Notes under the pieces: model-generated | What the model saw: the letters and a program-made list of their open reading frames with translations, nothing else | The model's database searches: none | Told to the model about the DNA's origin: nothing | Source of the DNA: Macrocystis pyrifera | Lineage: Eukaryota > Sar > Phaeophyceae > Laminariales > Laminariaceae | Length of the DNA: 64,000 nt | Direction: 5' to 3' | Assembly: GCA_031763025.1 (NCBI GenBank) | Contig: JASSKH010000006.1 | Span: forward strand, 11,839,979 to 11,903,978 | Shown here: positions 8,097 through 63,375 of the stretch, one piece after another | How positions within the stretch are numbered: the stretch's first letter is position 1 | Layout of the letters: each line of letters begins with the position of its first letter | Made by a program: the position numbers and the translations under genes

Positions 8097-11000
8097 ATGT
8101 TGCGTTCGCCACGTAGTGGATCAGTATCGTCCGCGTTGTTATCGGTGGTCATCCTCGTTGCCGCGTCTACCGTCACCACCACCTCGGCCCAAAGCCAGAA
8201 CAACTGCGTGTCTTACAATTCTTCCTCGAAGGCCGGGAACCCAGGGGGTGCTTCGATCGCGGACCCGAGCTACTTCGGCTGTGCAGACGAAGGCTTTATC
8301 GTGGCGGTGGAAGCATCGTACTTCAGCCCAACCAACTCGCTCTCATGGACGTAAGTACCAGTGACAGACAATACTGCTGCTGTAGACAACTTCTATACCA
8401 CAATTTTCTTCGTAGAACAGGGATAGGGGTTGGAAGGAGCAAGCATGTAACTGCACGGAGAGGGGGTTGCCAATGCTGCAGCACTGCTCTGGTGTGCATT
8501 AATTCGTACGCGGTGCCAGCATCAGTCAAAATATCAGCTGGTACCAGGTGTATTTGCCACAACGACTACTGACTACGGGGCTCGATGTAAGCCGGAATGG
8601 TGGAATGGCAATGGGGCTGGACACTCTTCGATTAGTTGCTCCCCCGGCCCCCGACCCCGCACTGCTGTGCCATGGTGGCGCCTGGTAAATACTGGACCCC
8701 CCTCTCCCCCCTCCTCTACGCATGTGACTCATATAGGAGCACAAGTTGGACCCCCCCCTCATCCCTCCCCTGTACGTGTCACGCCTGCTAAAATTTTAGA
8801 CCCTCCCCTCACCCCTCCACTGTGAGGGGGGTGTACAGTACACTACTTGAGTTTCGCGCCATGGCAATTGCGCCTCGCCATGGCAGGCCATGCCACGTCA
8901 TGGTACGTCATGGCACTTTACGGGCTCCCACGAATTGCCATGGTGCTTCATGGCAACGCTATAGAGGGGTGTCATGGGAGGTGCTATGGATATCCACGGC
9001 AATGTGATGGGGTTTCACGTCGCGTTATTTCGTAGCAAGCCATGAAAAACGCCATGACATTAGTTGGCGCATGTCATTGTCATTCATGGCATTTTCATGG
9101 AACGGCCCGTGACATTTCCATGGGGCCATGGAACGAACCATGACAATTCCATGGTAATGCCATGGCGGTACCATGGCGTGTGCATGGATGGTGTCGCCGT
9201 GACATTGATATGGGGCGCCATGGCGTCGCCATGGGTTACCATGGCATTGCCATTGCAGTCCATGGACTGCCAAGGCATAACACGCGCCAATGCGATGACA
9301 GACCCATCATAGGCTATGCATAATTTCATGGCGTGCGATGAAGGTTCGTGGCCGCGATGGCATGGCAATTCCACGGACCTTCGTGGTACGTCATGTCCGA
9401 CCTATGGTAGTTCATTGCGTACCATGGAGGTGGCCTCCGTTTTACGCCGTGACAGTCCATGGAAGTTCATGGCAATGCCGTGGTCCTTCAAAGTACGCAA
9501 TGACAGAGCATGTGGTTGGCCATGGAGAAGTTCATGGTGCGCGATGATAGACCCACGACCGGTCACCGAGGAGTTCAAGACTTACGATGAATGCTTATGG
9601 CAATGCCATGGACGTTCACGGTACGCCATTACAGATCCATGGAAGCTCATGACAAGACCATGGCAACGCCATCGACCTTCATGGTACGCCATACACAATA
9701 TATTCATGGCAGACCCATGGTTGGCCATGGAGCAGTTCATCGTACGCGATCACAGACCCATGACCGGTCATGGCGTGCCATGAAGGTTCATGGCAATACC
9801 ATGTCCCTTCACGGGACGCCATGCCAGACCCCTGGCATATCATTGAGAAATTCAAATAGGACGATGAAAGGTTCATGGGCTTCCGTGGCATTTCCATACT
9901 GGCTCGTGGCAATACCATGAGACCCCATCCATGATATCCTGGTGGCGTCTAGCAATGCCCCGTCCTAATTTAATAGTGTAGATCATTAATGAACAGGCAC
10001 CCTTGTGTTCATTCATGCCGGTGGCATGGTGTAAGCCGTGGCAAGTGTCGTGGCATCGCCATAGCATTGTCCTGGCGTGTTGCCATGACGTTCTGCGATG
10101 ACTACGGTATTGCAATGCCACATGAAAATGCCATGCGCCGTCATGTGCCCCATGACCTGCGATGGAAAAGTAAAATAGTACAGCTTGTTGCCCTGTGAGT
10201 GTCGCAAATTCTATCCTTGGAACCCTCGAAAGCAACCACAAAAAAAAACGATAAACTGTTGCAGCCTTATCAGCCGTCTATATGTACCTGGTAAGTATGA
10301 TGTGACGAGGCCTCCTTTTCCTCAAGAAAACACAAGGATAACAAGGCTGGAGCTTCGCGCTCGCTCGCCCCATTACAGCATAAAGCTTTGGTTACTAGGG
10401 ACAAGCTCCACCTAATAGCCCGCCTACGGTTAGCGCGAGTATTTCTTTCTTGTCATGCTGCGAATTACGGCATGAGCCTTAAAGCATTTGAAGTATAATC
10501 CTCTGGACTGAAATGTAAGGACCGGCTGTTATTCATGTTGGATTTTAAATGGTTCTTATATTTCCGTCCAAGGTGGCAATCAGGTGTGAGGATCGACGCG
10601 TCCTACCATATAAGTTGCAATCAGCGTTTGCAGCTGACGGGGTTCCACAGCTGATACACTCGATCACAAAATGGGCCCGCCAACAAGAAACACCTCGTAA
10701 TCTGAGCAATCGCTACAAATTTTAGTATAACACCATCCTTGTGTAACCTTGAGCATCGTTGACCATTGTATTGGACTTAGTGCAGCGCCCGCCTCCAAGC
10801 ACGTTTTCCTTGAATCCAGTTTTCTTGGCGGAGGTCCCATTACAATCTGGGAGGTAGGATCTTCGGGTTGGTAGAGGTTCAGGTATTTTGGTTCCTGTTG
10901 GGATCAAGGTACGGGCGAAGACCCAACCCAACCCCTGACTCTAACCCTAACCCTAACCCTGACCCTAACCCTAACCCTAACTCTGACCCCAAACCGCAGC

Positions 11001-14000
11001 CGACACGGGCCAAAAACTGGCCATAAACGCGGCCGCGCCACGTTTGCATCGAACCAGGAAATTTCTCAACTGCGGACGACGATTCCGAAGTGCAGACCGC
11101 GCTGCGCAATTTTCAAGTGAAAAACGCCCTAAAGATCCTACCTCCCAGATTGCAAAACCTACTCCCTTGGCGTCCCTCTAAAAGGGAACCTTCTGTTCTT
11201 ATTATTTAATATTTACTTTTCTTTCTTGTGGGCTTATACTGTACCTGGTACAGCTGTACCCAATATCATTATTGTTGAAAATAAGTTTTTTTGCATACGT
11301 ACAAGCCACTATAGTAGACCATGGGATGATTGTTTGTCGGGCGCGCTTTTGCAGTGGGAGTAGGTTTTACAATCTGCGAGCTCGGATGTTTAGGGGTGGT
11401 TTTGACTTAAAAATTGCGTAGCACGGTCTGCACTTCGGAATCATCGTCCGCAAAAGAGAAATTTTCCTGGTTGGATGCAAACGCGGCACAGCCGCGTTCA
11501 TGGCCAGTTTTGGCCCGTTTGGCTGCGGTTTTGGGGTCAGGGTCAGGGTTAGGTTGGTTAGGGGTTGGGTCTTTGCCCGTACCTTGATACCAGCAGGAAG
11601 CAAAACACCTGAACAGCCTACCAACCTAAAGATCCGGGCTCACAGATTGTAATACTAATATTACGGGGGACATTGGTGAATAGGACCGAATATTGCTAGT
11701 AAAAACAGGAAAATAAATAGGTCTTTGTCTGTACCGTAGATCCTATTTACTATGGTCCCACCCCGTGACAAGCCCAAAAACGTGGGTCTTGTCTCTCATA
11801 CAAGTATGGTCTTATCTTTTACTATTAAAAAATCCAGTACTACTTTCCACGTGTTTCTTTTGTCTCGTGTCAAGCCGCTGTACCCGGTCTTATCTCCAGT
11901 ATTGCCTTAAACCGAACAGTTTTAAAATGGGTACATCGCCTGTTGTATTTTATGACTTTTCTCAAAGTCAGTTTTCGGGCGAGGTCAACACCTCCTCAAG
12001 CGAGCCACCTCAGAAAATTCGATGCACGCCTGCCGTAGCTTGAGCCGGATGTCACTAACTGTGGTGCTGCACAGCCCCATGAGCATAGATCCGGTGTTCA
12101 GCTTCTATCACGAGGGATCAAAACAATGATAAAAGTGTAGGGTTAGCAAAACAGGGGGGGATGTAGGGGGATGTACAGTGTTGGGGGTCTATCGTGGGAT
12201 CTCATCACTATGCCTCCCCGATATTAATCACACGGCACAGCCCTGCTCGCAATATAGATCCCGTTAGCACGTGTCCGGCTCTAGTAGCGTTGCTCCGGTA
12301 TAAACTGTTGTGTATCACTTTTTACGTAGCCAAGGACCGCGGGGTTGTTTTGATATACGCGTGGGTGGTGGTGCAATTGTCCTTTGTTCGTTTCAACCCA
12401 TGTCGTCTCTTAACCGGGCGCGAGTGGCTACCCTCTCCCGGTGTTTCAGGTCAATTTCCCTCAAGGCAGGAGCATTTCCGAGAGATTCGTGGAATGCGTA
12501 ATGGATTGCTCAACCATGGCACCTTTCCCCGCGCACGGATGGTTGAAAACTCAGGTGCTCTGGCGGGGGATGTGATCGGCTCGTTCAGCAGCGGCAGCGT
12601 TGCTGAGGGCTCGATGTCATTCACGGTCGGCATCACGGAAGTGCAGGCCAGGGTTGCAGAAGGCCCGTTGGGCCCCTGTCGGACATACACTTTGGAGGAT
12701 ACGACCTCGACAGCTCCTGGAATGACGTATTTTTTGCGCTGAAAGGTCCAGTCATGTGAGCTTTCGTGAGGTCAATGGACATGTGGCGTTAATCCCTGCC
12801 ATTCGTTTCGGCAAAGAACGGCGGTTTCAACAGTTTATTCCTCGGACAGATGATTGATTTTAACTTATTGATTTAGATCCTTCAGGACAGATGTGTTCCT
12901 GATCTGTATGATCAGCTCATGTTTATCGGGTAGGGGCCGTACTGCCTTATGCTCTATACTGTATAACATATTTCCCGGGTTAGGTCCGTACCGTGCAGGT
13001 CCTGCACGACATCTGATCACTGTAGGTTGGAATCTTGTTTAGGTTATCTAATGTAGATCGTGATCTCTCCGACGCCTGCAAGATTTCAGCATCCCTCCTG
13101 ATCGTGACAATGCCACTATGCGAATAAACCTAACCGCTCGAGGGTAGGGGTCAGGGCTTAGGGGTAGGGTTAGGGTCGTGAAATAGCATTAGGATTGGGG
13201 GTTAAAATTAGGGTCAGGGTTTGGGTTAGGGATAGGGTGGTGGGGATCTACGGTTGGGGTTGGGGTTGGGATTCGGCTATATGAACAGGTTCGCAACGCC
13301 TCGACGCCCCAGAGTGTGAAGATCCGTGATCGAAAGGTATACATTATAGCCTGTACGTGTCCAAGGCCGGGAACGAACGTGAAATGATCGACAACCAAAT
13401 CGATATACATACACTATGTATACTCGCGCAAGTAGTGGAAAAAGTCAAAACCTCTTCATGTATCGACAGGCTGCACGTGCACGTAAACTATGACAACAGA
13501 CAGCAAGGATGTCTGAAATTATGACCCAATCAGATGGACCCAAGATTGAGATAAACATGTCCTCACCATGTTAGGACCGAACGTCTTGGGGTTTCGTTTA
13601 GAGACGCCATCGCTTCCCTACGTCCTAATTCATCACAACAAGCCACAGCAGGGCCGGCTAAGCAAAGTAGAATATAAACCTTTCCGTTCCGCCTTATGCA
13701 GGCTTACAGCAGCATTCGCAGTGTTTTCCTGCAACGCAAGGTTAATTGATCCCCACGAATTGTCGCCGAGGTGAGCGCGCACCAGCGCGAGGGGTTGTCC
13801 CGAGCGAGCCCTAATTGCTTTGAGGCAGGAAGTCCCGTCGAATCCAGTATTCATAAAGAATCACCACTGGCGCTATTGCTATATATACCTCGTGCGCGTT
13901 ATATACCTTGTACTGCACTCGTCAATACCGGTATGGTACCGCTACAATGATTTACACTGCCGCGCATCAATCAATGTAAGTAGTTTGGGTTAGACGAGCC

Positions 14001-17000
14001 TTCCTGCCCCGGTTCGATGGTCCCACCTATACTTCGGTTCGTTATCAAATATAGTCAATATACTGTCTTGGTCCCGCTTTGTCTCCCGCAACAGCGCATC
14101 TTGATGCACGCGCGCTCTTGCATTGGCGCCAACTGGAAGTGATCTTTTCCATGCTTCGGTAGTATCTGCTGCTGCTTCGTGCGCGCTTGCGTGGTGTCTC
14201 ATTCATACATCTAGCTGAAAACCCCCCTACTCTTTCAACTCGCCGACCACCTACCCAGTGCCAGACCCCTGCCCGTCCACGCTCGCGAATAGAGCCCCGT
14301 ACTACTGTACGCGGTCTTCTTCCTTTCTATCTCAACGCTTCCCAGCCTCTGTGTTCCCAGTTCAACCAACTGCATCCGTCGTCAACGTTTTGGGCCTCTT
14401 GTCCATCTCCTCCTTTCAAACATGCATATTTTTCAGTACCTCTCCACAAACCCCCAAAATTCGTCTGTTCAATCTTCCGCACTGGGTTTGCTACAGTTTT
14501 GTTTGATTTTCCCGACACTTCACACACTGCGAACCGGGCAGCTGACCACAAACCGCTGCCATAACAGCTATCCGAGAGCATGCTGGGTATTACCGTAGCG
14601 TTCAGGTTTACAGCCTTGAGCTGCATTCCCACGCTCGCCGCACTAAACACGTCGGAGAGACTACCGTCGCTGTGTTTTGGTGTGTCGGCTTACTGGGTCC
14701 CGTGGTTTCCTAAATACGTCAAAAGGCCTGATAAGAGCGATACCGTTTACGTCTCAACCGGGTGATGCCACTGCAGGGAAATATACCACTTTTTTGCCTT
14801 TCGACACATTATTTTCCCGATCGGTTGAGCTCCTCTAGCGAGAAACTGTAAACGTGCCTGTTACAGTAGTATACTTGTTCTGGCTACATTCGTTTTAGGA
14901 CGACAACACATGGAAATGCTGGCCTGGTTGCGCGACTAAACTTCTTCGAAGTGATGTTTCGGGTGAATTATCGAGCTCCTCTTTATGTGAGGTGTCCAGA
15001 AAATGTAACACCTACCCCTACCGTGAGAGGAGTCGAGCGCGAAATATGAACTACCCGGCAGAGCTAGAGAGATGACCACAGGCGGCCATCTGGCATGGGA
15101 GAGGATATTGCACTACTGATATACATACCCACCGAGCGTGTTCGAATTGTACGACACATTAGGTTCTTCCAGCTCGCCCTTTTAAGGATTATTCTTATCG
15201 GAGAGCTTTTTTTTTCCATAATTCCATGTTTTTTTCGCGCAATTTTGTTGATCTTCCAGATTTTCCTGATTTTCTTTTTCCAAATATGCGAAATTTAACA
15301 AACATGATTTTTTGTGCTTTTGGAGAATTTCACGAATAGTGACAGAATGCCTCCGTATATTGATACATATCTCCAATTATCTCCCGAGCTTTGGAAATTC
15401 TGGAAGAAACACTCTCCGATAAGAATGGACCTACTGTATATCCCTCCTTACCAAAAAAAACGACACACTTCTCTGCCGGTGGGTGGGGATGGATTCCTTG
15501 TGCGCTGTTCATCTCTTTCTGTTTGTTTTCTTTGTTTTCTGAAGGTCAAACGACGGGGACGCTGTGTTGCTGCCGGACATATCGGGTTCGTATTGCGGAG
15601 ACGACACCTTCGCCACGGGCGTAACGGTGTGGACGTTCGCCGAACTCGTGCTTGGGATTGTCCTGGAGTGCGCCTATGTGACCGATACGTGTGCGCCCCC
15701 CGAACTATCCTTCCGATCTCGTCGAAGGTACTGTACGTACGTCACGGGAACCGCAGTACCCCATGGCGTAAGCACGCGGCAGACGCGTGCTATGATACAG
15801 GTAGCCCGATTATTTTTCCGGGCGACGGTGCTCCTAAGCTGAGGAGCTATCCTGCAGAAAGATTCGTTAAATACGTACTCTATAGGAGAGCAGTGCCCTA
15901 TTTTCTTCTGAGGGCCTCAAGTTAACAGCTAGCTCAATATCTCACCCGAAAACGTGGCATTAATAAACATTCGTGCGTGCATCAACCTTGATCAACATTT
16001 TGCTGTGCGTTAGTCCCAACACCAAATACGCTATAGGAAAAAGGTATATTACCAACTGGTAGTTAGCTCGCGTGAGGAGCTGAGCCGGTCACAAAATATT
16101 GAGGTTAAAACGTGCAACTCCCTACCGTGGGGTGAATTGCGGATCATTCAACCGGGTTAGGTTTAATTTGCTTCGTCAAAATTCGGGTTTTTAGGGGTGA
16201 AAAGGGTTTGGGTGAGGCGAAGCTCCTCCTTGAACGACGAGGCTCACAACTACTGAGTGTTACCCATACGCACAAGGTGCGGAAGTCAGCCCCCCACAAG
16301 CGGTTCTTTGCAGGATGCAGCTCACGTTTCGTTGCGTGGCACTCCCACAGTAAGTTCAGATTCGTTACGGGGTGTGGCTTCACAAGCATGAGAGAAGAGA
16401 GCGAGACCGGCATTAAATGCACTAGAGGGAAGCATTCAAAGGGAACGGTGGGGGTGACTCTGTCGCGGGGCGTGCACGTTGACGTGCATTCCGTCAGTCG
16501 ATGCCGTAAAGCGTAGCCCTTTTACGTGTAGAAGGATAATTACTTATTTCTGGATAATTTGATGTTAGATGGCCCGACTCAATATACCAAAAAAAAAGTG
16601 GCGTCGATTGCGATGGTGCCATGGCCATTTCTCCACCATATATTTTGGTCAGTCAATCCACATACACACGAGCAGCGCAGACCCACGTCTTCTTCTTACC
16701 AATTGTCCCGCGCGACGGTGTTAAACCCCCTTCGTGCCGTGCGCGAACGCCGATACGTCTGGTTCCGGCACCGACCCAGCGACCCCTTCGCCGAGCACAA
16801 TAGACACCACGGACGCACCGGGCGTTTCTCCGAGTACTATGGCCGCCACGGATACGCCAAGTTCTTCTGGGGGCACCGCGCCTGCCATGAGCACGCCAAG
16901 CCCTTCCGTAAGCACCAGCCCCACCGCCGACTCACCAAGCTCTCCTGCCGGCACAGGGCCTGCCATCGACACACCAAGTCCTTCAATAAGCACCAGCTCC

Positions 17001-17670
17001 GGCACCGACAAACCGAGCTTCTCTGGCGGCGCCGGGCCTGTCATCGACACACCAAGCCCTTCCTTGAGTACAAGTCCCAGCGCCGACGCACCAAACTCGC
17101 CAGTGAGCACCGTGCCCGCCACCGACGCACCAAACTCGCCAGTGAGCACCGTGCCCCCCACGGATCCACCAAGCTCTTCTGCAACCACCGCACCTGCCAC
17201 CGACCCGCCAAGCTCTCCTGGGGGGGGTGCGGGGGCCACCACGGACCCACCGAGCGCTTCTGGGGGGCACCGCGCCAGCCACCGACCCCCCAAATTCTTC
17301 TGGAAACCCCGACTCCACCGACGACACACCAAGCCCTTCTGCTAACAGCGCGTTGTCCACCAGGGGCGCGCCGACCTCGTCGGGGAGCACTGCGGTCATC
17401 GCTGGCGTTTCGGCAGCGGGGGGGCTGTTGCTTCTGGCGATATGTATCACCGTTTCGTGCTGCCTTTACCGACGAGGAGAAAGAAGGGCGCGGCACCCCC
17501 TGAAACCCTGGGATACCTTTGGAACGCCAGTGCTTTCCGCCGGGAGGGGAAGCGGTGGGAGCCCAACCCCTGAAGGAGGGCGTGCGGCAAATGCAAGCGA
17601 AGGTGACCACCTCCCCCCCTACCGCCTCCCCCTCACGCTTCATGACCAAAAATTAAGTTGTAAAATCTGA
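8097..17670 (+). CDS. Gene A: long-stalk single-pass membrane protein of a four-copy family, with interruptions
   Basis: Four coding exons are proposed: 8097-8350, 12555-12755, 15545-15727 and 16780-17670. Donors are GAC|GTAAGT, GTGAGC and GTACTG. The exon 3 acceptor follows a strong TTTGTTTTCTGAAG tract. Exon 1 encodes a signal peptide (about residues 1-31), then NNCVSYN and YFGCADEGF. Exon 2 holds SFTVGI and GYDLD. Exon 3 holds SYCGDDTFATGVTVW, LECA and TCAPP. Exon 4 is a Ser/Thr/Pro stalk of about 200 residues, a membrane helix (GVSAAGGLLLLAIC) and a tail with PWDTFGTP. Expected length is about 508 residues. Breaks: a 6-C run at 15696-15701 and a 6-G run at 17262-17267 each look one base too long, and exon 2 carries two compensating frame changes. 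These could be consensus errors or real decay. The family is not recognised; a surface adhesion or receptor role is inference. Confidence 0.65.
8850..10170. repeat. CCATGG/CATGGCA-rich degenerate array
   Basis: About 1.3 kb are packed with CATGG, CCATGG and GCCATGGCA motifs every 10-25 bases, in both orientations because the core is palindromic. Recurrent phrases are TTCATGGCAATGCCATGG and ACCCATG. It lies in intron 1 of gene A. The many Met/Trp/His-rich open frames on both strands are by-products. No fixed period is visible, so it is closer to a decayed motif array than a regular satellite. Confidence 0.75.
10839..11158 (-). mobile_element. MITE with internal telomere-like repeats, copy 1
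   Basis: About 320 bases with imperfect terminal inverted repeats (ATTACAATCTGGGAGG at the left, the complement CCTCCCAGATTGCAA at the right). The interior contains several CCCTAA repeats at about 10935-10985 and shared phrases such as GGTACGGGCGAAGACC. It is inverted relative to the copies at 11365 and 58777. No coding capacity; a non-autonomous DNA transposon is the likely class. Confidence 0.65.
11365..11653 (+). mobile_element. MITE with internal telomere-like repeats, copy 2
   Basis: Same element as copy 1 in the other direction. It begins TTTTACAATCTGCGAG and ends CTCACAGATTGTAAT, with GGGTTAGG-type repeats inside and the shared phrase TTGCCCGTACCTTGAT. Together with copy 1 it forms a close inverted pair about 200 bases apart in intron 1 of gene A. 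Confidence 0.65.
12893..13065 (+). repeat. Dispersed intronic repeat (family R4), copy 1
   Basis: The segment starting CTGATCTGTATGATC, with TTTCCCGGGTTAGG, GCAGGTCCTGCACGACATC and a GATC-rich end, is related to 33340-33555 and 35283-35475. All three lie in introns of the membrane-protein family (A intron 2, B introns 2 and 1) and share the same direction on the plus strand. Confidence 0.5.
13141..13272 (+). repeat. G-rich telomere-like tract
   Basis: Degenerate TAGGGT, TTAGGG and GGGGTT units run through this stretch, ending in several GGTTGGG blocks. It lacks the ends of the MITE family that carries similar repeats, so it is a separate interstitial tract in intron 2 of gene A. Confidence 0.5.
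14809..15008 (+). mobile_element. Short intronic MITE-like element (family R2), copy 1
   Basis: About 200 bases start ATTTTCCCGATCGGTTGAG and end GAGGTGTCCAGAAAATG, so the ends are imperfect inverted repeats (ATTTTC / GAAAAT). Shared interior phrases include GAGCTCCTC, TTCTGGCTACAT and GAAATGCTGGCC. Copies lie at 32239-32453 and 51179-51383. Each sits within about 1 kb of exon 3 of a family member. Confidence 0.6.
16069..16125 (-). repeat. R2 element, inverted end fragment
   Basis: The sequence CGTGAGGAGCTGAGCCGGTC followed by ACAAAATATTGAGG is the reverse complement of the left end of the R2 family. Only one end is recognisable. It lies in intron 3 of gene A. Confidence 0.45.
16780..17340 (+). 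repeat. Minisatellite-like Ser/Thr/Pro stalk repeats in gene A exon 4
   Basis: Degenerate units of about 13 residues, pattern ATDxPSSSxGTxP, repeat through the stalk. One 39-base unit encoding TDAPNSPVSTVPA is present twice in a row almost perfectly (17083-17160). Such a stalk is expected to be O-glycosylated and extended. The shadow frames rich in Gly/Val or Arg/His here are not genes. Confidence 0.7.
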
Positions 17671-18015
17671 ACGTAAACGTCAGGATTAATATCAACGGTT
17701 GTACATAGAAGTACGTGAGCTAAGCGGTAGTCCGTCTCACAGGGTTTTGGGTCCGACTCGTGTGTGCTACGGTATAGGGAGACCACCCCCACTTTCACTC
17801 CAGCGTACGCACTGGGGCTAGTGGCCCTATATCTCACTCAGAAGTGGACCTCAAAAGTATGTCGTTGGCACACCCTAGCAAACAATGCCGTACAAAGTGT
17901 AGGGCGGGGCTTATATCGTGAAAACGAAACAACGCAAGAGCTCCAGACCTACGGATAAAATAGGGCAGTCACTCGGCTGCGTGAATCTGAGCGTCTGAAA
18001 ATGCAGGACTCGACT

Positions 18016-18104
18016 CGTTTAGGACCGCAGTCCCGTTTTGGGGACAAACCGCTCAACTTCTAAGTAGTTTGTCCCCAGAGCTGGACTGCAGTCCTAACTA
18101 AACG
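18016..18104. mobile_element. Palindromic mini-MITE (family R1), copy 1
   Basis: An 89-base near-palindrome. The left arm is CGTTTAGGACCGCAGTCCCG then GGGGACAAAC; the right arm is its imperfect complement (GTTTGTCCCC...GGACTGCAGTCC...TAAACG). Related copies are at 30816-30900 and 40443-40530. It has no coding capacity and could form a hairpin. Confidence 0.7.
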
Positions 18105-23790: not shown

Positions 23791-24021
23791 TGTAGCCAAA
23801 AGATACCAAGCCGTGGAGGTTTCAGTGTAATCGCATGTGTGAGTGGAGCAGTGGCCGGGGATCCTGTGTGATGTCCCCCTAGCCACCTGGCTCGTGGTCC
23901 GATGAGGATCACTCCGTGATAATACAAGCTCTAAGAACAAGACTTACTGAGTGCGAGGCCAGCGAGACTGGTGGAGTCCCTCGCTGGAAGCCCTCTTGCT
24001 GATATCATCTGGCAGAGGCCA
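23791..24021 (+). repeat. 5' LTR of the Ty3/gypsy element
   Basis: A 231-base terminal repeat beginning TGTAGCCAAAAG and ending GGCAGAGGCCA, matched by 28461-28690. The start TG and end CA are the usual LTR borders. Confidence 0.9.
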
Positions 24022-40200: not shown

Positions 40201-41531
40201 TGATGTGGCGGTTGAGCCATTCTGAAAAATTGCACCGCGTAAAAAATTCGACTCGGCTTCTTTTTATTTCGTTTTTTTTCTCGGTATTTTAGGACTCAAG
40301 CTGGTGTTTTTTACGAAAAACGAAAGTCTATATTCGCTTTATTTCCGTTTTTGTTTTTCGTTTTTGTTTTGCCCCCGTTAGGACCGGCCCTAATAGCGTT
40401 AAAAACGCTCTTCGTGGTCCCTGTCCAAGGTGGAATAAATTGCTAAAAACAACTGCAGTCCCGTTTCGGGGAGAAACCAGTAAAATTCCCAGTATTTTGT
40501 CCCCAAACCGATCTACTAATAAAGAGACTGCATTTTGCCATAAAAGGCTCAGTCAAGTCAGCTCGGAGACACTTTAGCGCGTTATATATATTTTTTGTTT
40601 TTTTGTTTTTCCTAATAATTGAACATCTATCCCTGGAGGTCTACCTCTCTATCGCCACCCGGATACGAGCTCACACGTTGACAGCAGCAGCGGTGGAAGG
40701 CGAACGAACAAGCTGCCGTCGGGAAACCTCCACACGTCGGACATAGCATGGTCTAGACAATCTACGAGAGTAGTTAGCCCCTCACCTGCCGTTACGACCT
40801 TATTATGAAGGATCTGCGTGCGAATATAGATCCGACCCAGGTTAGCATGTCATAGTCATATATCATGCAAGTTATACACCCCCCACCCGCGGCAACATGA
40901 GCGAGATCAATGACATACAGACCAAAATATATATATGTGCCCTGAAATAAAGTATCTCGATCATCAAGTTGGGAATCGATGATCTGCCAGAAAATAATTC
41001 GGCACGAACACTCGCCAACCAATGGAATTAATAGAGTGCCAGTTCGCCATACTCCACTATTCTGTCGTGCGACACAGATACGACCCAAAATGCGTACCAG
41101 GTTTTCTATCACTGCTGACACCCGTCCTCCTCGGTCCTCTCTCCGATACCGAGCGATGCCACAAAAAATGCAGCACGTACAAATATGCGTCGTGACAGAT
41201 ACGATCAAACTGTTGTAAGGTACCGTGGTAGTACTCACGTCCATGATAGCCCATCGAGAGGGCCAATCGAAGAAAAGGATGTTGATTCCACCGCCACGAT
41301 GAAGCCGTCGTCCGCACAAGTAAAGTAGATCGGATGAGCGAACATAACCTCCCACAGGTTCCCAGCCGAAGAAGAGGTGTTGTAAGATACACAGTCCTCG
41401 CTCTGCGCCGCTCCGGTGGTAAACGATGCGGCAAAGAGGACGGCGATCAAGAATGCGAACCGATTTGATGATGATGCCGATGGTACTGGTGGTGGTGTCA
41501 CCACTCTTTTTTGTGCCATGCGCAGCCGCAT
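31259..41531 (-). CDS. Gene B: short-stalk single-pass membrane protein of the four-copy family
   Basis: Exons in order of transcription: 41239-41531, 34663-34866, 33005-33186, 31259-31616. Donors GAC|GTGAGT, GG|GTGAGT and AAG|GTGCGT and the AG acceptors keep phases 2, 2, 1. Signal peptide about residues 1-43 (core FAFLIAVLFAASF), then EDCVSYNTSSS and YFTCADDGF. Exon 2 carries TCSGGD, SFTVAI, GGFDIDADG and FLWKGPLG. Exon 3 carries SSCGEDSFATGVTVW, LECA and TTCAPPNYP. Exon 4 is a stalk of about 30 residues, a helix (LFFLAVSVGVVSFFL), RRRETK and PRDTFGAS. Six ectodomain cysteines. The start at 41531 is chosen because a TATA-like box lies 40 bases upstream; a second ATG is at 41519. One frame slip lies at a 9-C run, 31496-31504, inside the helix; 7 or 10 bases would give about 345 residues. 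Intron 1 (6.4 kb) holds a copia fossil and a TIR transposon. Confidence 0.75.
32239..32453 (+). mobile_element. Short intronic MITE-like element (family R2), copy 2
   Basis: Begins ATTTTCTGACCGGTTGAG and ends GAGCTCAGAAAACGT, imperfect inverted ends. It shares TTGTTCTAGGGCTACAT and GAAGTGCTGGCC with copy 1. It lies in intron 3 of gene B. Confidence 0.6.
32877..32953 (+). repeat. R2 element, right-end fragment
   Basis: The phrase AACCTTCTTCGAAGCCATG through GCCCAGAAAATG matches the right half of copy 1 (AACTTCTTCGAAGTGATG ... TCCAGAAAATG). The left half is absent. It ends about 50 bases from exon 3 of gene B. Confidence 0.5.
33340..33555 (+). repeat. Dispersed intronic repeat (family R4), copy 2
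   Basis: Shares GTTTTCTGGGTTGGATC, GCAGATCCTGCGCAACATC and a GATC-rich end with 12893-13065 and 35283-35475. It lies in intron 2 of gene B. Confidence 0.5.
33869..34080 (+). repeat. Dispersed intronic repeat (family R3), copy 1
   Basis: Begins GGTGCTACGATACGGGTAGC, continues with GAGGAACCACAGCACACTGT and ends near a TTTTATGGGTGACG phrase. Related stretches occur at 48372-48560 and 50388-50575, with a short match at 15788. The GTGCTACNATANNGGTAGCAC start is itself nearly palindromic. It lies in intron 2 of gene B. Confidence 0.45.
35283..35475 (+). repeat. Dispersed intronic repeat (family R4), copy 3
   Basis: Shares CCTGATCTGTATGATC, GTTTTCTGGATTGGATC and AGATCCTGCACAACGTC with the other two R4 copies. 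It lies in intron 1 of gene B. Confidence 0.5.
35870..36630 (+). mobile_element. Ty1/copia retrotransposon fossil (RNase H end of pol)
   Basis: A broken fragment whose product matches the Ty1/copia RNase H region: GFTDASFAANPATRKST, AQSTVESELNAL, HCDNTGALTVAGNP and SRTKHIALRFFFI. The D, E and D residues expected at the active site are present. Only the end of pol is seen; no LTR was identified. Its direction is opposite to gene B, in whose first intron it lies. It is older than the Ty3 copy in this window. Confidence 0.85.
37041..37256 (+). repeat. Dispersed repeat (family R5), copy 1
   Basis: About 215 bases (TGCCCTCGATGAAATG, CTGTTCTCAGTTTGCTTGTC, CGGGACCAGCACAG, GTTTGGCTCAGGCAGAGCGT) are matched in the same direction by 55178-55412. 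No coding signal is shared. Confidence 0.6.
37840..38110 (+). repeat. GGTATGG minisatellite
   Basis: Tandem degenerate units of about 33 bases built from GGTATGGTATATGGGAATAT and GGGATATGTTGGT, becoming sparser after 37970. Tyr/Gly/Trp-rich frames on both strands are products of the repeat. Confidence 0.75.
39176..40392. mobile_element. Non-autonomous TIR DNA transposon (hAT-like ends)
   Basis: A 1.2-kb element bounded by inverted repeats: left CAGGGCCGATCCTAACGGGG followed by A-rich ACGAAA repeats; right end the complement of TAGGGCCGGTCCTAACGGGG plus the same A/T-rich repeats. The CAGGG start resembles hAT termini, but no matching 8-base target duplication was found. The interior has no recognisable transposase. 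It lies in intron 1 of gene B. Confidence 0.65.
40443..40530. mobile_element. Palindromic mini-MITE (family R1), copy 3, degenerate
   Basis: The left arm CTAAAAACAACTGCAGTCCCG with CGGGGAGAAAC is well preserved; the right arm (TTTTGTCCCCAAACCG) is only partly so. It lies just outside the TIR transposon, in intron 1 of gene B. Confidence 0.55.
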
Positions 41532-43133: not shown

Positions 43134-43329
43134 CATCGCCCCCCAAAGTTTGAACGCGTATTACTGGAGAACCCAGCACCACTTTTGAACATAGATGTCG
43201 AGTCGAACCTGGGGGTCCTCCCCACAAATATTGTTGGGTATTTGTACGAGAGAAGCCTTTGGGTAAGAGAAAGCGGGAAGTGTTTTGAGTGTCGGATCTA
43301 CGAGCCGGATGCGCGGGTCCGATCCGCGG

Positions 43330-49300: not shown

Positions 49301-50387
49301 TTTCACGTTTGATAAGTATTTACTGCGCCATAGGGTGGGACGTGGCGGGGTTCACCTAGTGCATATGCCACAGCTCCTCCTCCTCCTCCTCCTCCTCCTC
49401 CTCCTCCTGCACTAGGGGTGCCACCACGACCACCTGCTCCCCCCCCTCCGGCCGTACACTGGCGACCCGAAGGTTTCCCGAGCTTTGTCGGGGTTGCGAA
49501 CCTTCCTCGCTCTGCTCGTATAGAGACCGAACGCCACAACGGCGCTTATCGCGAGCATGCGCAGCCCCCCTGCCACAGAAACGCCAATGATGGCCATTTG
49601 GGCTACGGAAGAGGCCGACGACTCGCGGGTCGTTGCGGTCCCTGCTGAAGGGCCTGGCGTATCAGCGCCGGAACCGATGCTCACGGAAGGGTTCGGTGTG
49701 CCGCTGGCTGCAGGTACTACTGTGACCCCCGAATCACTTGGTGGGCTCGATGGCTGGCACGCTGCCCCCGAGAGAGCTTGGCGTGTCCGTGGCGGCGACG
49801 GTGCCCCCGGAAGAGCTTGGTGAGTCGGTGGGGGGAGAGTAACCCCCAGACGAGCTTAGGGCGTCAGTGGCGGCGGCCACAGTACTGACGGAAGGGGCTG
49901 GCGTGCCGATAGTGGGCGCGATGCCACCAGAAGACCATGGTGCGTCCGTGGCGACCACAGGGCTCACGGAAGGACTTGATGTGGCGGTAGAAGGCAGGTT
50001 GCTTCCGTAAGAGGAAGGTGGGTCAGTAGTGCCGCCATCAGGTGGATCTGATTTCGTTCGCGCATGGGCATGGTGGTGGGGTTGGAAAGCACCGCGCGGA
50101 GAAAGTGGTGTGAAAAGCAGGCGCCGCTTGTGGCTGCCAGTACTAGTATGTTTACGCGCGAGTAGACCACACATCGTAGTAGTCGACACTAGCGCTGTTC
50201 GAAGCCGTAGTAAGTAATGGAATGTGTGGTCAATGCTACTCAATCTTCCCGTCTCTCCATTTACGCATGGCGAGGGAGAATCCAGTCTGCGGCGCCTACG
50301 ACGGAGAATGCACGCCGGTGTTTATGATCCGAAAGGGAGGTTTCGTCAAACCCTGCCCTTTTAACGTTGCCGAGTCTCGTTGCTGAT

Positions 50388-50575: not shown

Positions 50576-51178
50576 GGAGTTACTCAAGTAAAAACTAGCC
50601 CCACGAAAATTGCGGATGCACTCTGCTACCGTAGCATGCGTCTATTTTCCCGTCCTTCTCCTCGGTCCAGACATCAGGACCAATCCAATTGCCAGGTATC
50701 GAACAAAACGGTGGCAACGTTTGCGACCGCCACGATGTGGCGACATTAGCATTTGCCGCTCGAGAGCAGCTGCTACGCAGCCCAAAACATGGAAAACACG
50801 GATTTAAAGTTATGTGACGGCCTTAATTTACTTGCGTCAGGGGTGGCATTTCTCCCCAGCGACACACCTTCCAGGAGGCCAGCAGGGAAATCCGGGGGGT
50901 GCGCACGTCTCTGTGGCATACGCGCACTCCAGTACAAGCCCATACACAAAGTTGGGAGAAGACCACACGGTTGCGCCCGTTGCGAAGGCGCCACTGCCGC
51001 AGGCGGAAACCACAAAGTCCGGCAAAAGTACATCTTCCTCAACACTTTTCCTTCAAGACCAAACGGATTAAAAACAGCGCACGCGAGGATCATCCCTGCC
51101 GAAAAGGGCACGTAGGTTAGGGATGGTTCTTGGAGTGATACTACGGCATGGGGCATACTACGTAGCTCTTTTAGGCTC

Positions 51179-51383: not shown

Positions 51384-52829
51384 ACAAGGCACCACTCGCG
51401 CGAGGCACTACTTCTTGTAGAAAAGGGAGCTGAAGGGAGCGTCGGCGTATTTCCTACACATTCTCACAGTACGAGAAATAGGGTAGGCGCAAGTCCTGCT
51501 CTAGCCGGGTAGCCGTCTGTGCACACCTCTCTTCCCTGCTAACTGCTACTTCGCTCCAGGAAAATGAACGGTATCGATCGCTCTTCCCACGGCTTGCCGT
51601 TGCGTAGGCTATCGCGGGACCCGGCTACGATGTCAGGACACGAGAGTTGTTGAAACGACAAAACCGCCATTGCCGAAATACTTGAAGGATATCGGCAGGA
51701 CGGACCACATGTGCTCGTTGGATTGAAAAACCTCACCCGAACAGATCTTTCCACGAGAAAAGTATGTTATCCCAGGTTGTATCGAGGTCGTATCCTTCGA
51801 AGTACATGTCCGACAAGAACGCATGGGAGCCTTCTGCTGGTCTGCACTTCCACGATGCCCACTGTAAATGACACCGAGCCCTCGGCAAAGCTGCCGCTGC
51901 TGAACGGGCCGACTGTTTCCCCCGATAGGGCACCTGAGGTATTCAACCATTGGTGTATGAGCGAAAAATAGCCAGGGGCGGAAACTCTACATGGAGATAC
52001 CCGCTGTCCATAAAGTCTGTCAGTTCTACCATTTAGGATAAATTGACACTACAGGCCAGGAGAGGGCAACAGCCGCGCACACTACAAAAACGAAACGGAA
52101 GGAAGCCCGAGCAACGATTACAATCGTATCACCCATACGTATTTTTAGCAACCCGGCGATTTGTTGGCTTTTATTGCACACCGAGGGGATTCGATCTAAA
52201 CTGAACACCCGAGCTACTTCTTACAACCCGGTACACCGCAAGGAACTTGTACGACACCGAGACGCGTAGGCCGTCAGCCCACTACAACAGCGGGCACTGA
52301 GAAAGGCAATCTGTTACCAGTTATTCACCAGTGTATCCTGTCCCCCTGCCGTGGATCACGCGCACTCAGTACGTATACTATACGAAATTGCAGTGGCTAC
52401 GGAATATGTCCTTAATATGTATTGCAAAATCTGCCCTCTCTGCCTCGTAGTCTGTGACCACATAGAGGTTGCATCTGCCAGGCATGAACTTTCAACACTG
52501 ACACTACTGTAGACGTGTTTGATGCCGATGGGCAGAACCAACCGTTTATGAAGTAAATAGCACGCACATGACACGCTCACGTCCATGAGAGGGTACTGAG
52601 TGAGGTGATGTACGACGCTTCCACCGTCAGGAGAAAACCGTCGTCGCCACAGCCAAAGTACGTCGGATCCGCGATTATGTTGTTATCCAGAGGAAGAGTC
52701 GAATTACGCACAGCTGTTCTGACTTTGGGCCGTGGTGGTGGTGACGGAAGACGCGGCAAAGAAGCTGACCGCCACGGATATCGCTGCTCTCTTTGTCGAA
52801 CGCAACTTGCTTTCCTTCCGCGACAAACC

Positions 52830-57041: not shown

Positions 57042-57120
57042 AACGACAAAAATGGTCGCCACGACTTTGCGTTCCTCGACGTGTCATGCACAGGCAGTTA
57101 GAGTGCCCAAGACGAAAACC

Positions 57121-60100
57121 ATGCAGTGCAAGACACAGCAAAGGTTAGCGACGGCGCTAGTCGCATCGGTCGCAATTCTTGCCGCTTCTACGGTCACCAT
57201 AACCACAGCCCAAACCCAGGACTGCGAGTTGTACTACCCCGACTCCGGGGCTCTATCATGGAACACTACGTTCGCAGAGCAGAAGTACTTCAGTTGTGCA
57301 GAATATGGCGGCTTTCTTGTCGGCGTGGAAGCCACAAAGGATGACACCCTGGCGCTCGACGCGCTCTCGTGGACGTGAGTACAACAGTATTGTATTAATA
57401 ATACACGGGACAGTTACGATATCTATATGATGGACCTTCCAGCGAGAGATTTCATAAACTTCAAAGAAACCTACCTCGACTGAGTCGACGGATGCTACAT
57501 TTATTTCCAGAAATTTCTCATAGCTACTTCGTACGTACGTATTTTACTCTGTAGTAGTGTACTATTATATAGACCGATTTCTTCGAATAGAAGGAACGGG
57601 GTAATTATTAGCATACGAGGGACCAGGTACCAGATACGATTAATAGGTACACTTGCCGGACAGGGGAGGAGAAGGCAGAATATGCGCAACTGTTTAGCAA
57701 GGGTCGACCGTTTTCTACTCATAGACGACATGTTGTAGGGCCGCAAATAGCCCGCGAGATGGCTTTTCCCTTTTGTTTTTGCCATTTTTCTACTCATAGA
57801 CGACATGTTGTAGGGCCGCAAATAGCCCGCGAGATGGCTTTTCCCTTTTGTTTTTGCCATTCATGGTCTGGGAACCAAATGGAAAGTTTGAAGTTTTCGA
57901 GTTTTCATACATCACTCGTACGCGTACATACCCCCCAGCAATGAGCTTCTTGAACACTCACCAAACTGTAAGTACTGCTGTAACACAGTTGCACCAGGTA
58001 CGTACCACTGTACTTACGAGGCTGTACGAGTATATATGTGGTGTATTATTTTTGAAAATGTTTTTGTGCCCCACCCGTCGTCGCTTGCTCTGAAACCGCA
58101 CAAGTTGAGCCTGACGATGGCTAATGTTGTACCCCCCGCGTCGGTTTGGACGGCAGGTGGTCAGGGTGCCAAATAGGAGCAGCGTAAAACCCCAGTTTGG
58201 CGGCAGGATTTAGAACCTCGCCCGCCTGATGGGGCCTTTTTACACCGGGTGCAATTATTTCTGTGCAGATGAAGAACGCATTAACCCCCGAGTTACCCCG
58301 CACTCGTAGGGAATCTTTATTTCTCGCGGTAGTCTACGCGTGTGCGTTATTCACGCCGCTAGTTCTACACATCGACATCCATGCACACCTAAGAGTGCCC
58401 GTGCTGATGATTATTTTAGTCTAGCAGAGAGATGGCTCGAATGACAAGCTATTATCGAGTCGCAAATTACAGTACGAACCAGCGATTTGGTCTCCCCGAC
58501 TTCGGAAAATAAATAATTACCCCGAATTCGGAAAGTAACTTATTTTTTTTCATCGAATGTTGCTACAGTAGAAGAACGGTTTAATGTGAAGAACACACAC
58601 ACACTCAATTAATAGTTGTTTGTCGATCTAGAGGCGGCAGCAAACAAAGACAGAGCGTAAATACCAACTATTCTCGTATGATATTCGATCGCAAATAAAT
58701 ACCTGTTAACCCCTTGGGACCCCGAGATGGCGACCATTACGATGATTGGTAGCTTTGCCTGGTCTGCGAGAGTGGGTTTTGCAATCTTTGAGCTAGGATA
58801 TTTAGGGGTGTTTTTGACTTGTAAACTGGGTGGAGCGATCCGCACTTCCGAATCTTCGTCCGCAATTGAGAAACTCCCTGGTTAGATGCAAACGCCGCGC
58901 AGCCGCGTTCGTTTATGGCCAATTTTAACCCGTTTTGCCTGCGGTTTGGAGTTAGGGTTAAGGTTAGGGGTTGGGTTGTGGGTTGGGTATTTGCCCGTAC
59001 CTTGATCCCAACAGGAACCAAAATACCTGAACAGCCTACCAACCTGAAGATCCGGGTTCACAGATGGTAATGGGGCCTCCTACGAGAAGCGACAGCGCCC
59101 CGAAGGGAAGATAGGACCATGTTGCACACAGCTCCTTGCGTTGTAACTCGGACACCAAGTTTTGCGTCACTCCCGCCCAGACCACGCAGTTGCGGTTGCG
59201 GAAATCGTCACTACTAGTTAACGCCAATGTCCCCCTCGGAGGTCTTACGAGGATCAAAATTTAAAATGGAGACATTCGGCAATGCAATGCCGAATGCGCT
59301 CGATACGAAAAAGAGGTACTTGTAGCACACGGGCTTAAAGGAAAATGATACATTTTGCTGGAGAGAAAGTTAAATAAGGAAAAGAATAAAATAGGAAATA
59401 AGGTGACGAAAGAAAAAAATAGAAGCGAGAAGGGCAGGAAAGACCGAGATGATGTTGTGTCCCCTGAGCATGATGCAACACGGATACAAAAAAGAAAGGC
59501 GTTTGTTTTTCCAGAAAAAACGTTAAGGGGGACAAAATAAAGGATACCAGGTTCCTTGTACGAAATTAAAATAAAGGACAGACGGAAACAAAACAGACCA
59601 CAAACAGGAACCGAACGGAAGGGTACCCAGCCCGGGTTCCGCATGCAACGATGGGAGTTACCACATGGTCTGTCACTTCTTTTCTAACCTTCGACAACGG
59701 CGGCGCCCGCACAGCTAGCTATACGTGTGTCCGATTTGTGCCTCGAGAAAGTATCATGAACTGCATGACGGAATGTATCTTAGACCGCACGTTATCGTAC
59801 CACTTTGTGGCTCTATCATCTGCCCGACTTTTTATTTCGCCAACAAAAGTGTATAGGCTGTGCAACAGCAGTGCACATGGTAAAAATCTGCAGTACCCGT
59901 ACATATTTCTAATGTTTTACGTATATTTCTCGTACATAGCACCAGGGCATGTATTGTCGTATGTTTGCGGAACATAAAAACGCGGCAAAAAGATAGTGAC
60001 GTACCGTACTCGCCACTATCTCAAGGGTTAGATAGTGGCAAGAGGTCCTTCTTTGTTGGATTTTCACATCTTGGAAACCTGGTGGACCAACATTGGTGTC

Positions 60101-63100
60101 CATACGAGGTGTACACCAACTTGCTTTGGCACCATGTTTCTGAGATCAACAAGATAAGAGAGCCACAAAGCGGTGCGACAACGTGCGGTCTTATCATCAG
60201 CACAATTTCATACGGACGAAAACTACCCGAACTCTTTCCATTAGCTTTTTTGGCCAAGGATGAACATATTGCAGAAAGAAAACGATACAACAGTGCCTAA
60301 GTCTATGTACGCTCTCGTTGGCCCAAGTACCAGGCTTGATCCTCTATCGAGAGGATCCCGATTGACGAGACCTTTCAGGATGGCTGTTTCCCAGCAAAGC
60401 ACCCCCCCCCACTTGTGACTACATATAAACTTGACCCCGGTAGTACATTAATGTCTGCACTGCGGTCGGTCGCTAGCTGATCTCATTGTCAGCTCTCTTC
60501 CGGATGTTCGTTGGCGTTCAAGATCTGCTTTCTCTTGAGCATTTCGCTAGCTTTCAAGGTGTTTTATTCTGAAAGAACCTTTAGTTTTTCAACTTTTAAT
60601 TCGTCAATTTCGTCAACTGTTTTTTTTTCCACACCCGCCCCCCGCCCCCCTTCCGTCCCCTCCCTTCCAAGCCCCCCCCCTATCGCCCGCTTGGATATTA
60701 ATCTAAAATATTGTAGCTCACGTTCTTTGGGCATGGACACCTGGGGGCGCTGATCAAAGGAGATACTGCATTGAAAGCGCGCATGATATAACCCAATCTG
60801 CTATTTATTGTTACGAGTAGCTTTGAGTACTCGTAGCTGCGCTGGCTACTTCGAAGTCGCGACTGCCCGGCACCTGTCATGCCCGAACCCTCCTCTCGGC
60901 GCTCACTTTCATGCCCCTCACCCTCCTCCCTGCAACTCACCTTCATGTACGAGTAACACATCCGCCCGTGCATTGCTCCACCCATGTGTCCTCAACTCGT
61001 TGATATCACGGCAGCATTAAATCTTGCGCCATCTCCTCCTACCAAGACCTGGGCTATACCGGGCATGTTTAAAATGTTCCCAACACCTGATTCATAGATT
61101 GATTACAGCACTGGTTCGAGTTTGAAATGAAACAATTGGCGGGAAAGTCCAAGGCCAACGGTTAACCACACAACAATCGTGTAGTTCAATAAATGGAAAT
61201 GCACGCGTCTGCCTGTTGTCTTAGTTATTTTTATACGATCGCTATACGCTACCCCCCCGAAGGGAGAGATGCATTAATGGATCATGTACATGGTATGCAT
61301 CTGACATGTGATATTATAGGGAAGTGTGCTCATTTCCCCTCTCCCATAAGTGGTTCATTCAACTCTGGCACGCTTCCTTCACCCATGGGGTCTCGTCTGG
61401 GATATCCACGGGTTTAGCACTGATGCGTAGGCATACTTGAATCGTAGCATGTAACCGACACATACGCTTGGGGGAACCGTTGAACAACTCAGGTGCTCTG
61501 GGGGAGAGGTGATCGGCTCATCCAGCAGCGGCAGCGACCCCGAGGGCTCGGAGTCCTTCACAGTGGGAATCAGGAAAATTCGAGCGCACGTGTTGCTTGA
61601 GTTTCCGTACTTGGGTAATTTGATCGTCGAAGGGTACGACGTTGACGATGACGGGACTGGCTCGTTCTTATGGAAAGGTCCTTTAGGGTGAGTCGGGGGT
61701 GGATTTGATACCCCCGCTATTAATTTCGGACAAGCCCGCCTCGAGGGCTTTCTGGTGCTCTACTTGGGTAGGTCTCTTCGTCTGAATGTGTGCTGTTTGC
61801 CTGTAGGGGCTTGTGAAAATTAATTGGTGGTGAACTCATGGACAGTAATGCGAACCAAGGGTCAATTACTGCTGTAGATACGAAATACATTTCCTATGTG
61901 TGTAAGGAACGCAAGTATTGTAGGATACAACAACGCACCTAGGGAACAGCAGTACAGTATCTGCCAGGAGAGCCGCGACGCTACGTATGCAGATCATATG
62001 CTTCTTGGAAAACGTAGGGACATAGTAGACCGCAATAATGCAGTATACTTGCGCGTGTTTATTTTGCGAGCGCGGAAGCACCACCAGGAGAGACAACAAC
62101 AGCAGACAGGTGATGCAGGGAAGGCCTTGCCCTAAACCTACGTACAATAAGTGCAGCTGGGTGTTGTCGTATCGAAGTGCTCAAAACGTGAAAGTCCCAA
62201 GCCCCTTCCACACCCATCCCTCAAACGAGCGTGTCATCGGTGTTGTTTCCCCTCTATTTTTTTCTTGGTGCAAAGGGAGGTCGGAGATTCTTCCGCAGTC
62301 GTGCCGGACACGGCATACTCTTACTGCAACGACGACTCGTTTGCAACGGGGGCGACTGTGTGGGCTTCCGTCAACTACGTATATGGAATTGTACTGGAGT
62401 GTGCAGAATTGACGGCGACGTGTGCACCCCCGAATGTTCCAGCCAGTCTCCTCGACTCAGGTATGTCGTCGGAAAACGTCACTCCTGACGTAAATGCTAC
62501 ACCCAGCAACAACCGTTCACATTATAGCCGTGACAAGCGTGACTTGGGCTCCGTACCGCTCTCGAGGGACAGCGTCCATTACCGTATGTACCGTGTGTGG
62601 TCTGTTGAGCTTTGCGCTCGAATTCTGATAGTTTGTGCTGTGCGGTGGCAAGCGCGATGGGGAAGAGAGCTCAAGATAAGGGGGAAGGGTAGCCCATCCT
62701 TCCGGTGTAAAGCACAAACATCAGCTCGCACTGTGATGTAGGCGCTGAAGACTGAAACCTTCCTCAGCATACACCATATCATACTGTATTGAAATGAGTT
62801 ACAATTCATCGGTCATCGGGGTTTTTCAGCAATTTCGCCGCAATACCGGCTGCCGTCTACTATAAACAGAAGTATCAATATCAATGGTGGTACTGTAGCG
62901 TGCCCCGCACTCCGCCGCCTTATTCGTCGACCCGGAAATCACAGGGCCACGTCTCTCTACGCTGTACCACTTACATCGCATTGCTGCCATCTCGTGTGCG
63001 AACGCTTCCAACTGTCCATCAGATAAGTCAACACCCGCGCCGAGCTCTCTTGTTCTCACACCCGAACCGAGCTCTTCCTCCATCCCCACCGCCGGATCAA

Positions 63101-63375
63101 GCGTCAACCGTGAGGGGTCAAAGTCTTCTTCCGTGAACATGAAAGCTATCATTATCACGGCCGCGGGCGGGGGGCTGCTTCTGATCGCGGCAACTATCTG
63201 TGCGACGTGCTGCATCCGCCGCCGCGGAGAAAGCAATAAAAGCAACTCCAACAAGATCCCACCTGGAATTGCTGGCGTAGGGCCTATGACCGAGAGGGAA
63301 CAAGGTGGGGCCAGCACCCAGCAGGGTAGAGTTGTGAACAATACGAACGGAGATGACAACCCCTTGTCTCGATGA
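57121..63375 (+). CDS. Gene D: intact short-stalk single-pass membrane protein of the four-copy family
   Basis: Four exons: 57121-57374, 61493-61687, 62276-62460 and 63023-63375. Phases are 2, 2, 1; the joined length is 987 bases, an exact 328 codons plus stop. Donors are GAC|GTGAGT, GG|GTGAGT and CAG|GTATGT; acceptors CTCAG, GCAAAG and ATCAG. Signal peptide about residues 1-30 (core LVASVAILAAS). Ectodomain cysteines at about 35, 59, 86, 167, 192 and 199, within DCELYY, YFSCAEYGGF, TCSGGE, YCNDDSFATGATVW, LECAEL and TCAPP. Exon 2 holds SFTVGI, GYDVDDDG and FLWKGPLG. Then a Ser/Pro stalk (about 212-250), a membrane helix about 253-276 and a basic tail (RRRGESNK) that lacks the DTFG motif of its relatives. 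No known domain is recognised; a type I surface protein is the safe call. The start at 57121 matches the signal-peptide starts of A and B. Intron 1 is 4.1 kb. Confidence 0.85.
57711..57860 (+). repeat. Two-copy 75-base tandem duplication
   Basis: Two perfect or near-perfect head-to-tail copies of a 75-base unit (TTTTCTACTCATAGACGACA ... TTGTTTTTGCCAT). It lies in intron 1 of gene D. The duplicated peptide seen in its frame is not a coding signal. Confidence 0.9.
58777..59071 (+). mobile_element. MITE with internal telomere-like repeats, copy 3
   Basis: Starts GTTTTGCAATCTTTGAGC and ends GGTTCACAGATGGTAA, with GTTAGGGTTAAGGTTAGG inside and the shared phrase TTTGCCCGTACCTTGATCCC. Same direction as copy 2. 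It lies in intron 1 of gene D. Confidence 0.65.
59651..60300 (+). other. Unrecognised open frames within gene D intron 1
   Basis: Two adjacent frames of 108 and 111 residues. The second (GKRSFFVGFSHLGNLV, SGATTCGLIISTISYG, LPELFPLAFLAKDE) has a protein-like composition but no ATG, no splice evidence and no known domain. It could be a relic of a mobile element. It does not resemble the membrane-protein family. Confidence 0.2.

What the first reader, a model, noticed from the sequence alone, without database searches (positions are those of the whole stretch)
8097..63375. A four-copy, apparently undescribed family of stalked single-pass membrane proteins
Seen directly: four loci (A +, B -, C -, D +) share the same four-exon design, donors, acceptors and motifs (DC/NC...YF.C, TCSGG, SFTV(G/A)I, G(Y/F)D(L/V/I)D, C....FATG.TVW, LECA, TCAPP), then a Ser/Thr/Pro stalk, a helix and a basic tail. 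I match the ectodomain to no family I know. Clustered, diverging surface proteins with mucin-like stalks are typical of recognition, adhesion or self/non-self systems, but that role is inference.
Basis: partly seen in the sequence, partly recalled or inferred. Interest (0 to 1): 0.88.

Follow-up and report, generated by a model that had tools for sequence, protein, structure and literature searches.

The report
Stalked β-prism-like surface protein genes
A stretch of an unidentified eukaryote's genome carries four related copies of a gene for a cell-surface protein whose outer part probably has a lectin-like fold, but only one copy reads as intact.

Summary
The four-copy family is real: D (+, 57121-63375), B (-, 41531-31259), A (+, 8097-17670), C (-, 52808-49412), matched exon by exon. 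Conserved pieces differ mostly at silent sites in the proposed frame, not in shifted frames. Assembly error at base runs cannot be excluded for A and B.

No sequence family matched, but the fold is probably known. For B, 39 of 50 listed Foldseek rows are β-prism I proteins (jacalin-type lectins, VMO-I, insecticidal proteins; best E 0.016). D gives a jacalin-type lectin at ranks 1, 3 and 4, without significance. Both models have pLDDT about 40. Profile comparison with VMO-I and jacalin-like repeats is suggestive at best. Best reading: a membrane-tethered, lectin-like adhesion or recognition family, largely decaying here. Ligand, location and organism are unknown.

The parts
57121..57374 (+). 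D exon 1: signal-peptide-like start and Cys-ended module 1 (C59...C86, the second Cys in exon 2); acceptor of a likely 5' non-coding exon at 57092-57093
61493..61687 (+). D exon 2: module 2 (SFTVGI...GYDVD...WKGPLG), no Cys pair of its own
62276..62460 (+). D exon 3: Cys-ended module 3 (C167...C192) and TCAPP
63023..63375 (+). D exon 4: Ser/Thr/Pro stalk (residues 212-250), helix, short tail, stop
41239..41531 (-). B exon 1, open
34663..34866 (-). B exon 2, open
33005..33186 (-). B exon 3, open
31259..31616 (-). B exon 4: short stalk (about 30 residues), helix with a frame change at a G run (31496-31504), tail
   Evidence: the 31259 end read by eye
8097..8350 (+). A exon 1, open
12555..12755 (+). 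A exon 2, two frame changes
15545..15727 (+). A exon 3, frame change at a C run near its end
16780..17670 (+). A exon 4: long repeat-built Ser/Thr/Pro stalk with a frame change near 17262, helix, tail
   Evidence: the 17670 end read by eye
52581..52808 (-). C exon 1 relic: no ATG, two stops, frame change
   Evidence: ends read by eye
51737..51933 (-). C exon 2, two frame changes, the first shared with A
50868..51050 (-). C exon 3, frame change at a C run shared with A
   Evidence: ends read by eye
49412..50047 (-). C exon 4: repeat-built stalk with stop and frame change, helix, tail
   Evidence: the 49412 end read by eye

Best explanation
A small dispersed family of type I membrane proteins. 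A signal peptide sends an ectodomain of three β-hairpin modules, roughly one per exon, to the cell surface. Modules 1 and 3 begin and end with a cysteine (28 and 26 residues), probably disulphide staples; module 2 has none. The modules most likely close into a β-prism I, as in jacalin-type lectins and VMO-I. The domain stands on a Ser/Thr/Pro stalk of variable length, probably O-glycosylated, anchored by one helix with a short tail. It most likely works as a tethered lectin-like adhesion or recognition protein that binds a glycan with the loops of the prism. Here D is the intact copy, C is dead, and A and B are interrupted. Shown: the family, exon plan, coding constraint, interruptions, stalk and hydrophobic segment. 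Supported, not proven: the β-prism. Inferred: disulphides, surface location, glycan binding, recognition.
For: Four homologous loci with one exon plan; coding constraint, strongest in exon 3 where codon position 3 changes most in 6 of 6 pairs. Two hydrophobic stretches only, residues 8-30 and 248-277, and a stalk 54% S/T/P against 26% in the whole protein. Six invariant cysteines. Foldseek of the B model: 39 of 50 listed rows are β-prism I proteins, best E 0.016, probability 0.98; D model: Mevo lectin, a jacalin-type lectin, at ranks 1, 3, 4. A VMO-I repeat-unit profile fits module 1 best, 4 of 200 column shuffles as good; module 1 against module 3, 2 of 100. A bacterial Cys-jacalin profile aligns on modules 1 and 3 in 4 of 4 listed alignments.
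Against: Both models are poor (mean pLDDT 40.7 and 39.6); no Foldseek match reaches E 0.001; the D list holds 14 GFP-like rows and only 4 β-prism rows by my count; the 39 rows for B are redundant (10 are banana lectin) and 12 are insecticidal proteins. Pfam scans report neither Jacalin nor VOMI. hhalign P values are 0.05-0.3; shuffles match the bacterial profile's score 26 of 200 and jacalin's 52 of 150. Module 2 shows no sequence likeness to modules 1 or 3 (52 and 10 of 100 shuffles). No ligand, expression or localisation data.
Confidence: 0.5

Rival explanations
1. The ectodomain has another, perhaps new, β-rich fold; the β-prism likeness comes from weak models. It would still be a stalked surface protein, for example a cell-wall or matrix linker.
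For: pLDDT about 40, no significant fold match, GFP-like rows for D; no sequence family.
Against: Two copies, modelled apart, both put β-prism proteins first, and the Cys-ended module pattern had been compared with VMO-I before any model was seen (note, written before the fold search was collected).
Confidence: 0.3
2. A β-prism domain that does not bind sugar: a structural coat or matrix protein, as VMO-I is in the egg membrane, tethered to the plasma membrane.
For: VMO-I-like repeat match better than the jacalin one against shuffles (4 of 200 against 52 of 150; the jacalin profile held one sequence).
Against: Most of the lectin rows are sugar binders (recalled); nothing here separates the two.
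Confidence: 0.2
3. The family is a decaying remnant with no product, D included.
For: Three of four copies interrupted; repeat- and retroelement-rich surroundings; no transcripts could be examined.
Against: D is open over 328 codons in four exons with GT-AG borders.
Confidence: 0.12
4. A and B are intact genes and their frame changes are errors at runs of one base; only C is a pseudogene.
For: Several breaks lie at G or C runs. The retroelement's LTRs differ only in the length of one C run while its pol is split over frames.
Against: A and C share two breaks at the same places, and in exon 2b A and C differ as much at position 1 as at 3 (10, 5, 6).
Confidence: 0.35

Closest known systems
VMO-I, vitelline membrane outer layer protein 1 (Pfam VOMI PF03762, PDB 1vmo)
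   Same: Modules that begin and end with Cys, spaced like modules 1 and 3; C..GF..V/E...L...C pattern; 1vmo is rank 20 in Foldseek for B.
   Different: No WGxW or DDTALN-type motif, no Cys pair in module 2, added stalk and helix; no Pfam match.
Jacalin-type lectins (Pfam Jacalin PF01419; banana lectin, horcolin, Mevo lectin)
   Same: Most of the β-prism rows for the B model and the first row for D; a GxDxD stretch in all four copies.
   Different: Plant jacalins lack the Cys staples; no profile match; the GxDxD stretch is in module 2 and its use as a sugar site is untested.
Cys-containing jacalin-like domains of Myxococcota (L015, L020, L026-L055)
   Same: C...C modules; alignments fall on modules 1 and 3.
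   Different: Score within shuffles (26 of 200); bacterial proteins without the stalk plan examined here.
Mucin-stalked single-pass surface receptors (general kind)
   Same: Signal peptide-like start, S/T/P stalk with repeats, one helix, short tail.
   Different: No known ectodomain family by sequence; ligand unknown.

Membership tests
VOMI / VMO-I (PF03762) | Profile match to PF03762 | tested here: not met
   Not reported for D at E<=10 nor for 10 pieces of the family at E<=1
VOMI / VMO-I (PF03762) | Cys pair closing each of three repeats | tested here: not met
   Present in modules 1 and 3, absent in module 2
VOMI / VMO-I (PF03762) | WGxW and DDTALN-type motifs in repeats | tested here: not met
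   Seen in 1vmo and most of the 17 units, absent from the family alignment; D has DDT once but not in B, A or C
VOMI / VMO-I (PF03762) | β-prism I fold | tested here: inconclusive
Jacalin (PF01419) | Profile match to PF01419 | tested here: not met
   hhalign with a single jacalin 52 of 150 shuffles as good
Jacalin (PF01419) | β-prism I fold | tested here: inconclusive
   B model: 39 of 50 listed rows, E 0.016 at best; D model 4 of 50
Jacalin (PF01419) | Sugar binding | not testable with these tools
   needs binding assay
Stalked type I surface protein (general kind) | Hydrophobic start, S/T/P stalk, single hydrophobic segment, short tail | tested here: met
   Hydropathy and composition of D; no trained predictor on hand

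The most novel reading that the evidence does not exclude
A lineage-restricted family of membrane-tethered, Cys-stapled β-prism lectins built about one module per exon, whose middle module (exon 2) changes fast while exon 3 is constrained, and whose copies turn over by duplication and decay as in allorecognition or gamete-recognition loci.
Probability: 0.2. Interest if true: 0.65.

Novelty: new variant of a known kind. Interest (0 to 1): 0.4.

Why it matters
If right, it gives a candidate surface lectin with a defined plan and a testable ligand question. Passages of PMC4700764 say that proteins of fertilisation in brown seaweeds had not been described, although some sperm-egg binding proteins had been isolated from Fucus, and that lectin-like receptors had been seen on Ectocarpus male gametes. 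Whether this window comes from such an alga is untested. It also turns a claim of four proteins into one intact gene and three interrupted ones.

Tried and rejected
Relatives by sequence: viral contigs, 18 stretches matched a pattern and none was confirmed, a DNA pattern gave 0; genome contigs, 100 stretches and none confirmed; phages, no match. Metagenomes and eukaryote genomes were not searched. Weak rows (Sortilin E 0.053, FliP 1.5, hexokinase 0.41, antibody 0.48) were rejected as chance. Retroelement relatives in viral contigs: none confirmed. Of 20 ORFs scanned with Pfam at E<=0.01, only the 3 of the retroelement matched; other ORFs were not scanned. No tRNA and no Rfam match. In one search no bacterial locus joined the jacalin seed, so that test rests on one sequence. 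In one search twelve loci were read by position; by eye L015, L016, L018, L020 and L023 look like the domain, the others seem to be in a wrong frame; I went on with L015 and L020 only. One search kept 32 of 50 rows (100 residues or more, distinct). Programmed frameshifting as a cause of the A/C breaks was considered and set aside, since read on, the exon 3 break leaves the stalk frame (by eye); not tested further.

Papers: six searches; I saw listings of at most 15 rows each and noticed no description of this family there; one search found no paper holding both its terms. Only PMC4700764 was opened, passages only.

My note and the idea called the LTRs identical; one search shows one difference in the length of a C run.

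Full report
Observation. tblastn of the D product against the window returns matching exons at four loci, and a family HMM over six frames shows no fifth locus at E below 0.001 (one further row at E 0.81). B spliced alike is open through exons 1-3. Introns 1 and 2 are phase 2, intron 3 phase 1. In one search's border table the exon ends first entered for A exon 4 and for C exons 1-3 were off by one to several bases; the coordinates given under parts are those read afterwards.

Coding constraint. Over 300 nt of alignable pieces, 6 of 6 pairs have pS 0.41-0.59 and pN 0.18-0.26 (dS 0.60-1.16, dN 0.20-0.32); in frames shifted by 1 or 2 the two are about equal. By exon, codon position 3 changes most in exon 3 in 6 of 6 pairs. 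In exon 2a it does so in 3 of 6 pairs (B-D: 10, 11, 9 at positions 1, 2, 3). In exon 2b, read for A, B and C only, it is never the sole highest. Exon 1 was read for A, B and C over 15 codons. The numbers are small; a fast exon 2 is a hint, not a result.

Interruptions. C lacks the start codon and has two stops and a frame change in exon 1. A and C share a frame change at a G run early in exon 2 and one at a C run near the end of exon 3; each changes frame again inside exon 2 and in the stalk. B changes frame at a G run in the helix. Only D reads as intact. Real decay or error? For decay: C's point changes, and breaks shared by A and C. For error: several breaks sit at runs of one base; and the LTR retroelement at 23790-28692 has LTRs of about 234 nt with no substitution and one difference in the length of a C run, while its RT, RNase H and integrase lie in different frames. 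I leave A and B open.

Architecture. D has hydrophobic stretches at residues 8-30 and 248-277 and no other 19-residue window above 1.6 on the Kyte-Doolittle scale; the stalk, residues 212-250, is 54% S/T/P; the last 55 residues hold 8 K/R and 5 D/E; one sequon lies in the ectodomain, at residue 48. Stalk length differs: 39 residues in D, about 30 in B, at least 163 in A, where 39-nt repeats build it. A, B and C share (D/E)TFG in the tail, D does not.

What the ectodomain is, by sequence. Pfam at E<=10 for D and E<=1 for ten pieces, NCBIfam at E<=1, and the PDB by sequence and profile give nothing credible. By eye, exon 1 and exon 3 resemble the Cys-ended hairpins of VMO-I (note). A profile of 17 VMO-I repeat units from six proteins (1vmo and Myxococcota loci) fits module 1 best (P 0.049) and module 3 second (P 0.17). 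Column shuffles reach the unit score in 4 of 200, the full VMO-I score in 9 of 200; module 1 against 3: 2 of 100; 1 against 2: 52 of 100; 2 against 3: 10 of 100. A single jacalin: 52 of 150. A Myxococcota Cys-jacalin profile of 32 rows aligned on modules 1 and 3 in 4 of 4 listed alignments, but 26 of 200 shuffles reach its score. Several profiles were tried, so the lowest of these fractions should not be taken alone. Sequence does not prove kinship.

By structure. AlphaFold on shallow alignments of 10 rows gave mean pLDDT 40.7 for D and 39.6 for B, with like strands over modules 2 and 3; module 1 is not resolved. Foldseek for B: of the 50 rows listed (369 matches at E<=10), 39 are β-prism I proteins: 26 jacalin-type lectins (10 of them banana lectin), VMO-I at rank 20, and 12 rows of insecticidal proteins with a β-prism domain; the assignment of names to fold is my knowledge. 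Best E 0.016, probability 0.98. For D, of 50 rows listed (379 matches), Mevo lectin is at ranks 1, 3 and 4 and one such insecticidal protein at 16, but 14 rows are GFP-like. None reaches E 0.001. I take β-prism I as probable, about 60%; no control model of an unrelated sequence could be run.

Function. A tethered β-prism on a mucin-like stalk most simply works as a lectin-like adhesion or recognition protein. Sugar binding and location are not shown. Clustering with decay and a loosely constrained exon 2 fit recognition, but also plain loss of function.

Novelty. A sequence family without a match in the collections searched, probably a known fold in a tethered setting: a new variant of a known kind. 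Eukaryote genomes could not be searched, so relatives may well be annotated elsewhere, and the organism remains unidentified.

Noticed in passing
23790-28692: LTR retroelement on +: zinc knuckle, RT, RNase H and integrase domains lie in different frames, yet its LTRs (about 234 nt) show no substitution and one difference in the length of a C run; either recent and defective or run-length errors in the assembly.
   Followed up: partly
18012-18097 and 30812-30897; partial copy near 40451-40510: Dispersed 86-nt elements that fold as long hairpins (z -5.65 and -9.07 as DNA; the third copy -0.76), perhaps MITE-like.
   Followed up: partly
57711-57860: Perfect tandem duplication of 75 nt inside intron 1 of D.
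   Followed up: no
42544-43625: Arrays of about 41-nt units rich in GACCCGACCCG.
   Followed up: no
10921-10989; similar stretches by eye near 13140-13260 and 58950-58990: Telomere-like ACCCTA/TTAGGG-type interspersed repeats (for the first; for the others).
   Followed up: no
17512-17523 (A), 31397-31408 (B), 49466-49477 (C): The cytoplasmic tails of the three interrupted copies share a (D/E)TFG motif that the intact copy D lacks.
   Followed up: no
L026-L055 (Myxococcota): A profile of two Cys-containing jacalin-like domains matches 37 of 377 genomes (at most ten candidates scored per genome), against 7 of 377 for Pfam Jacalin: a bacterial group that the Pfam model seems largely to miss.
   Followed up: partly
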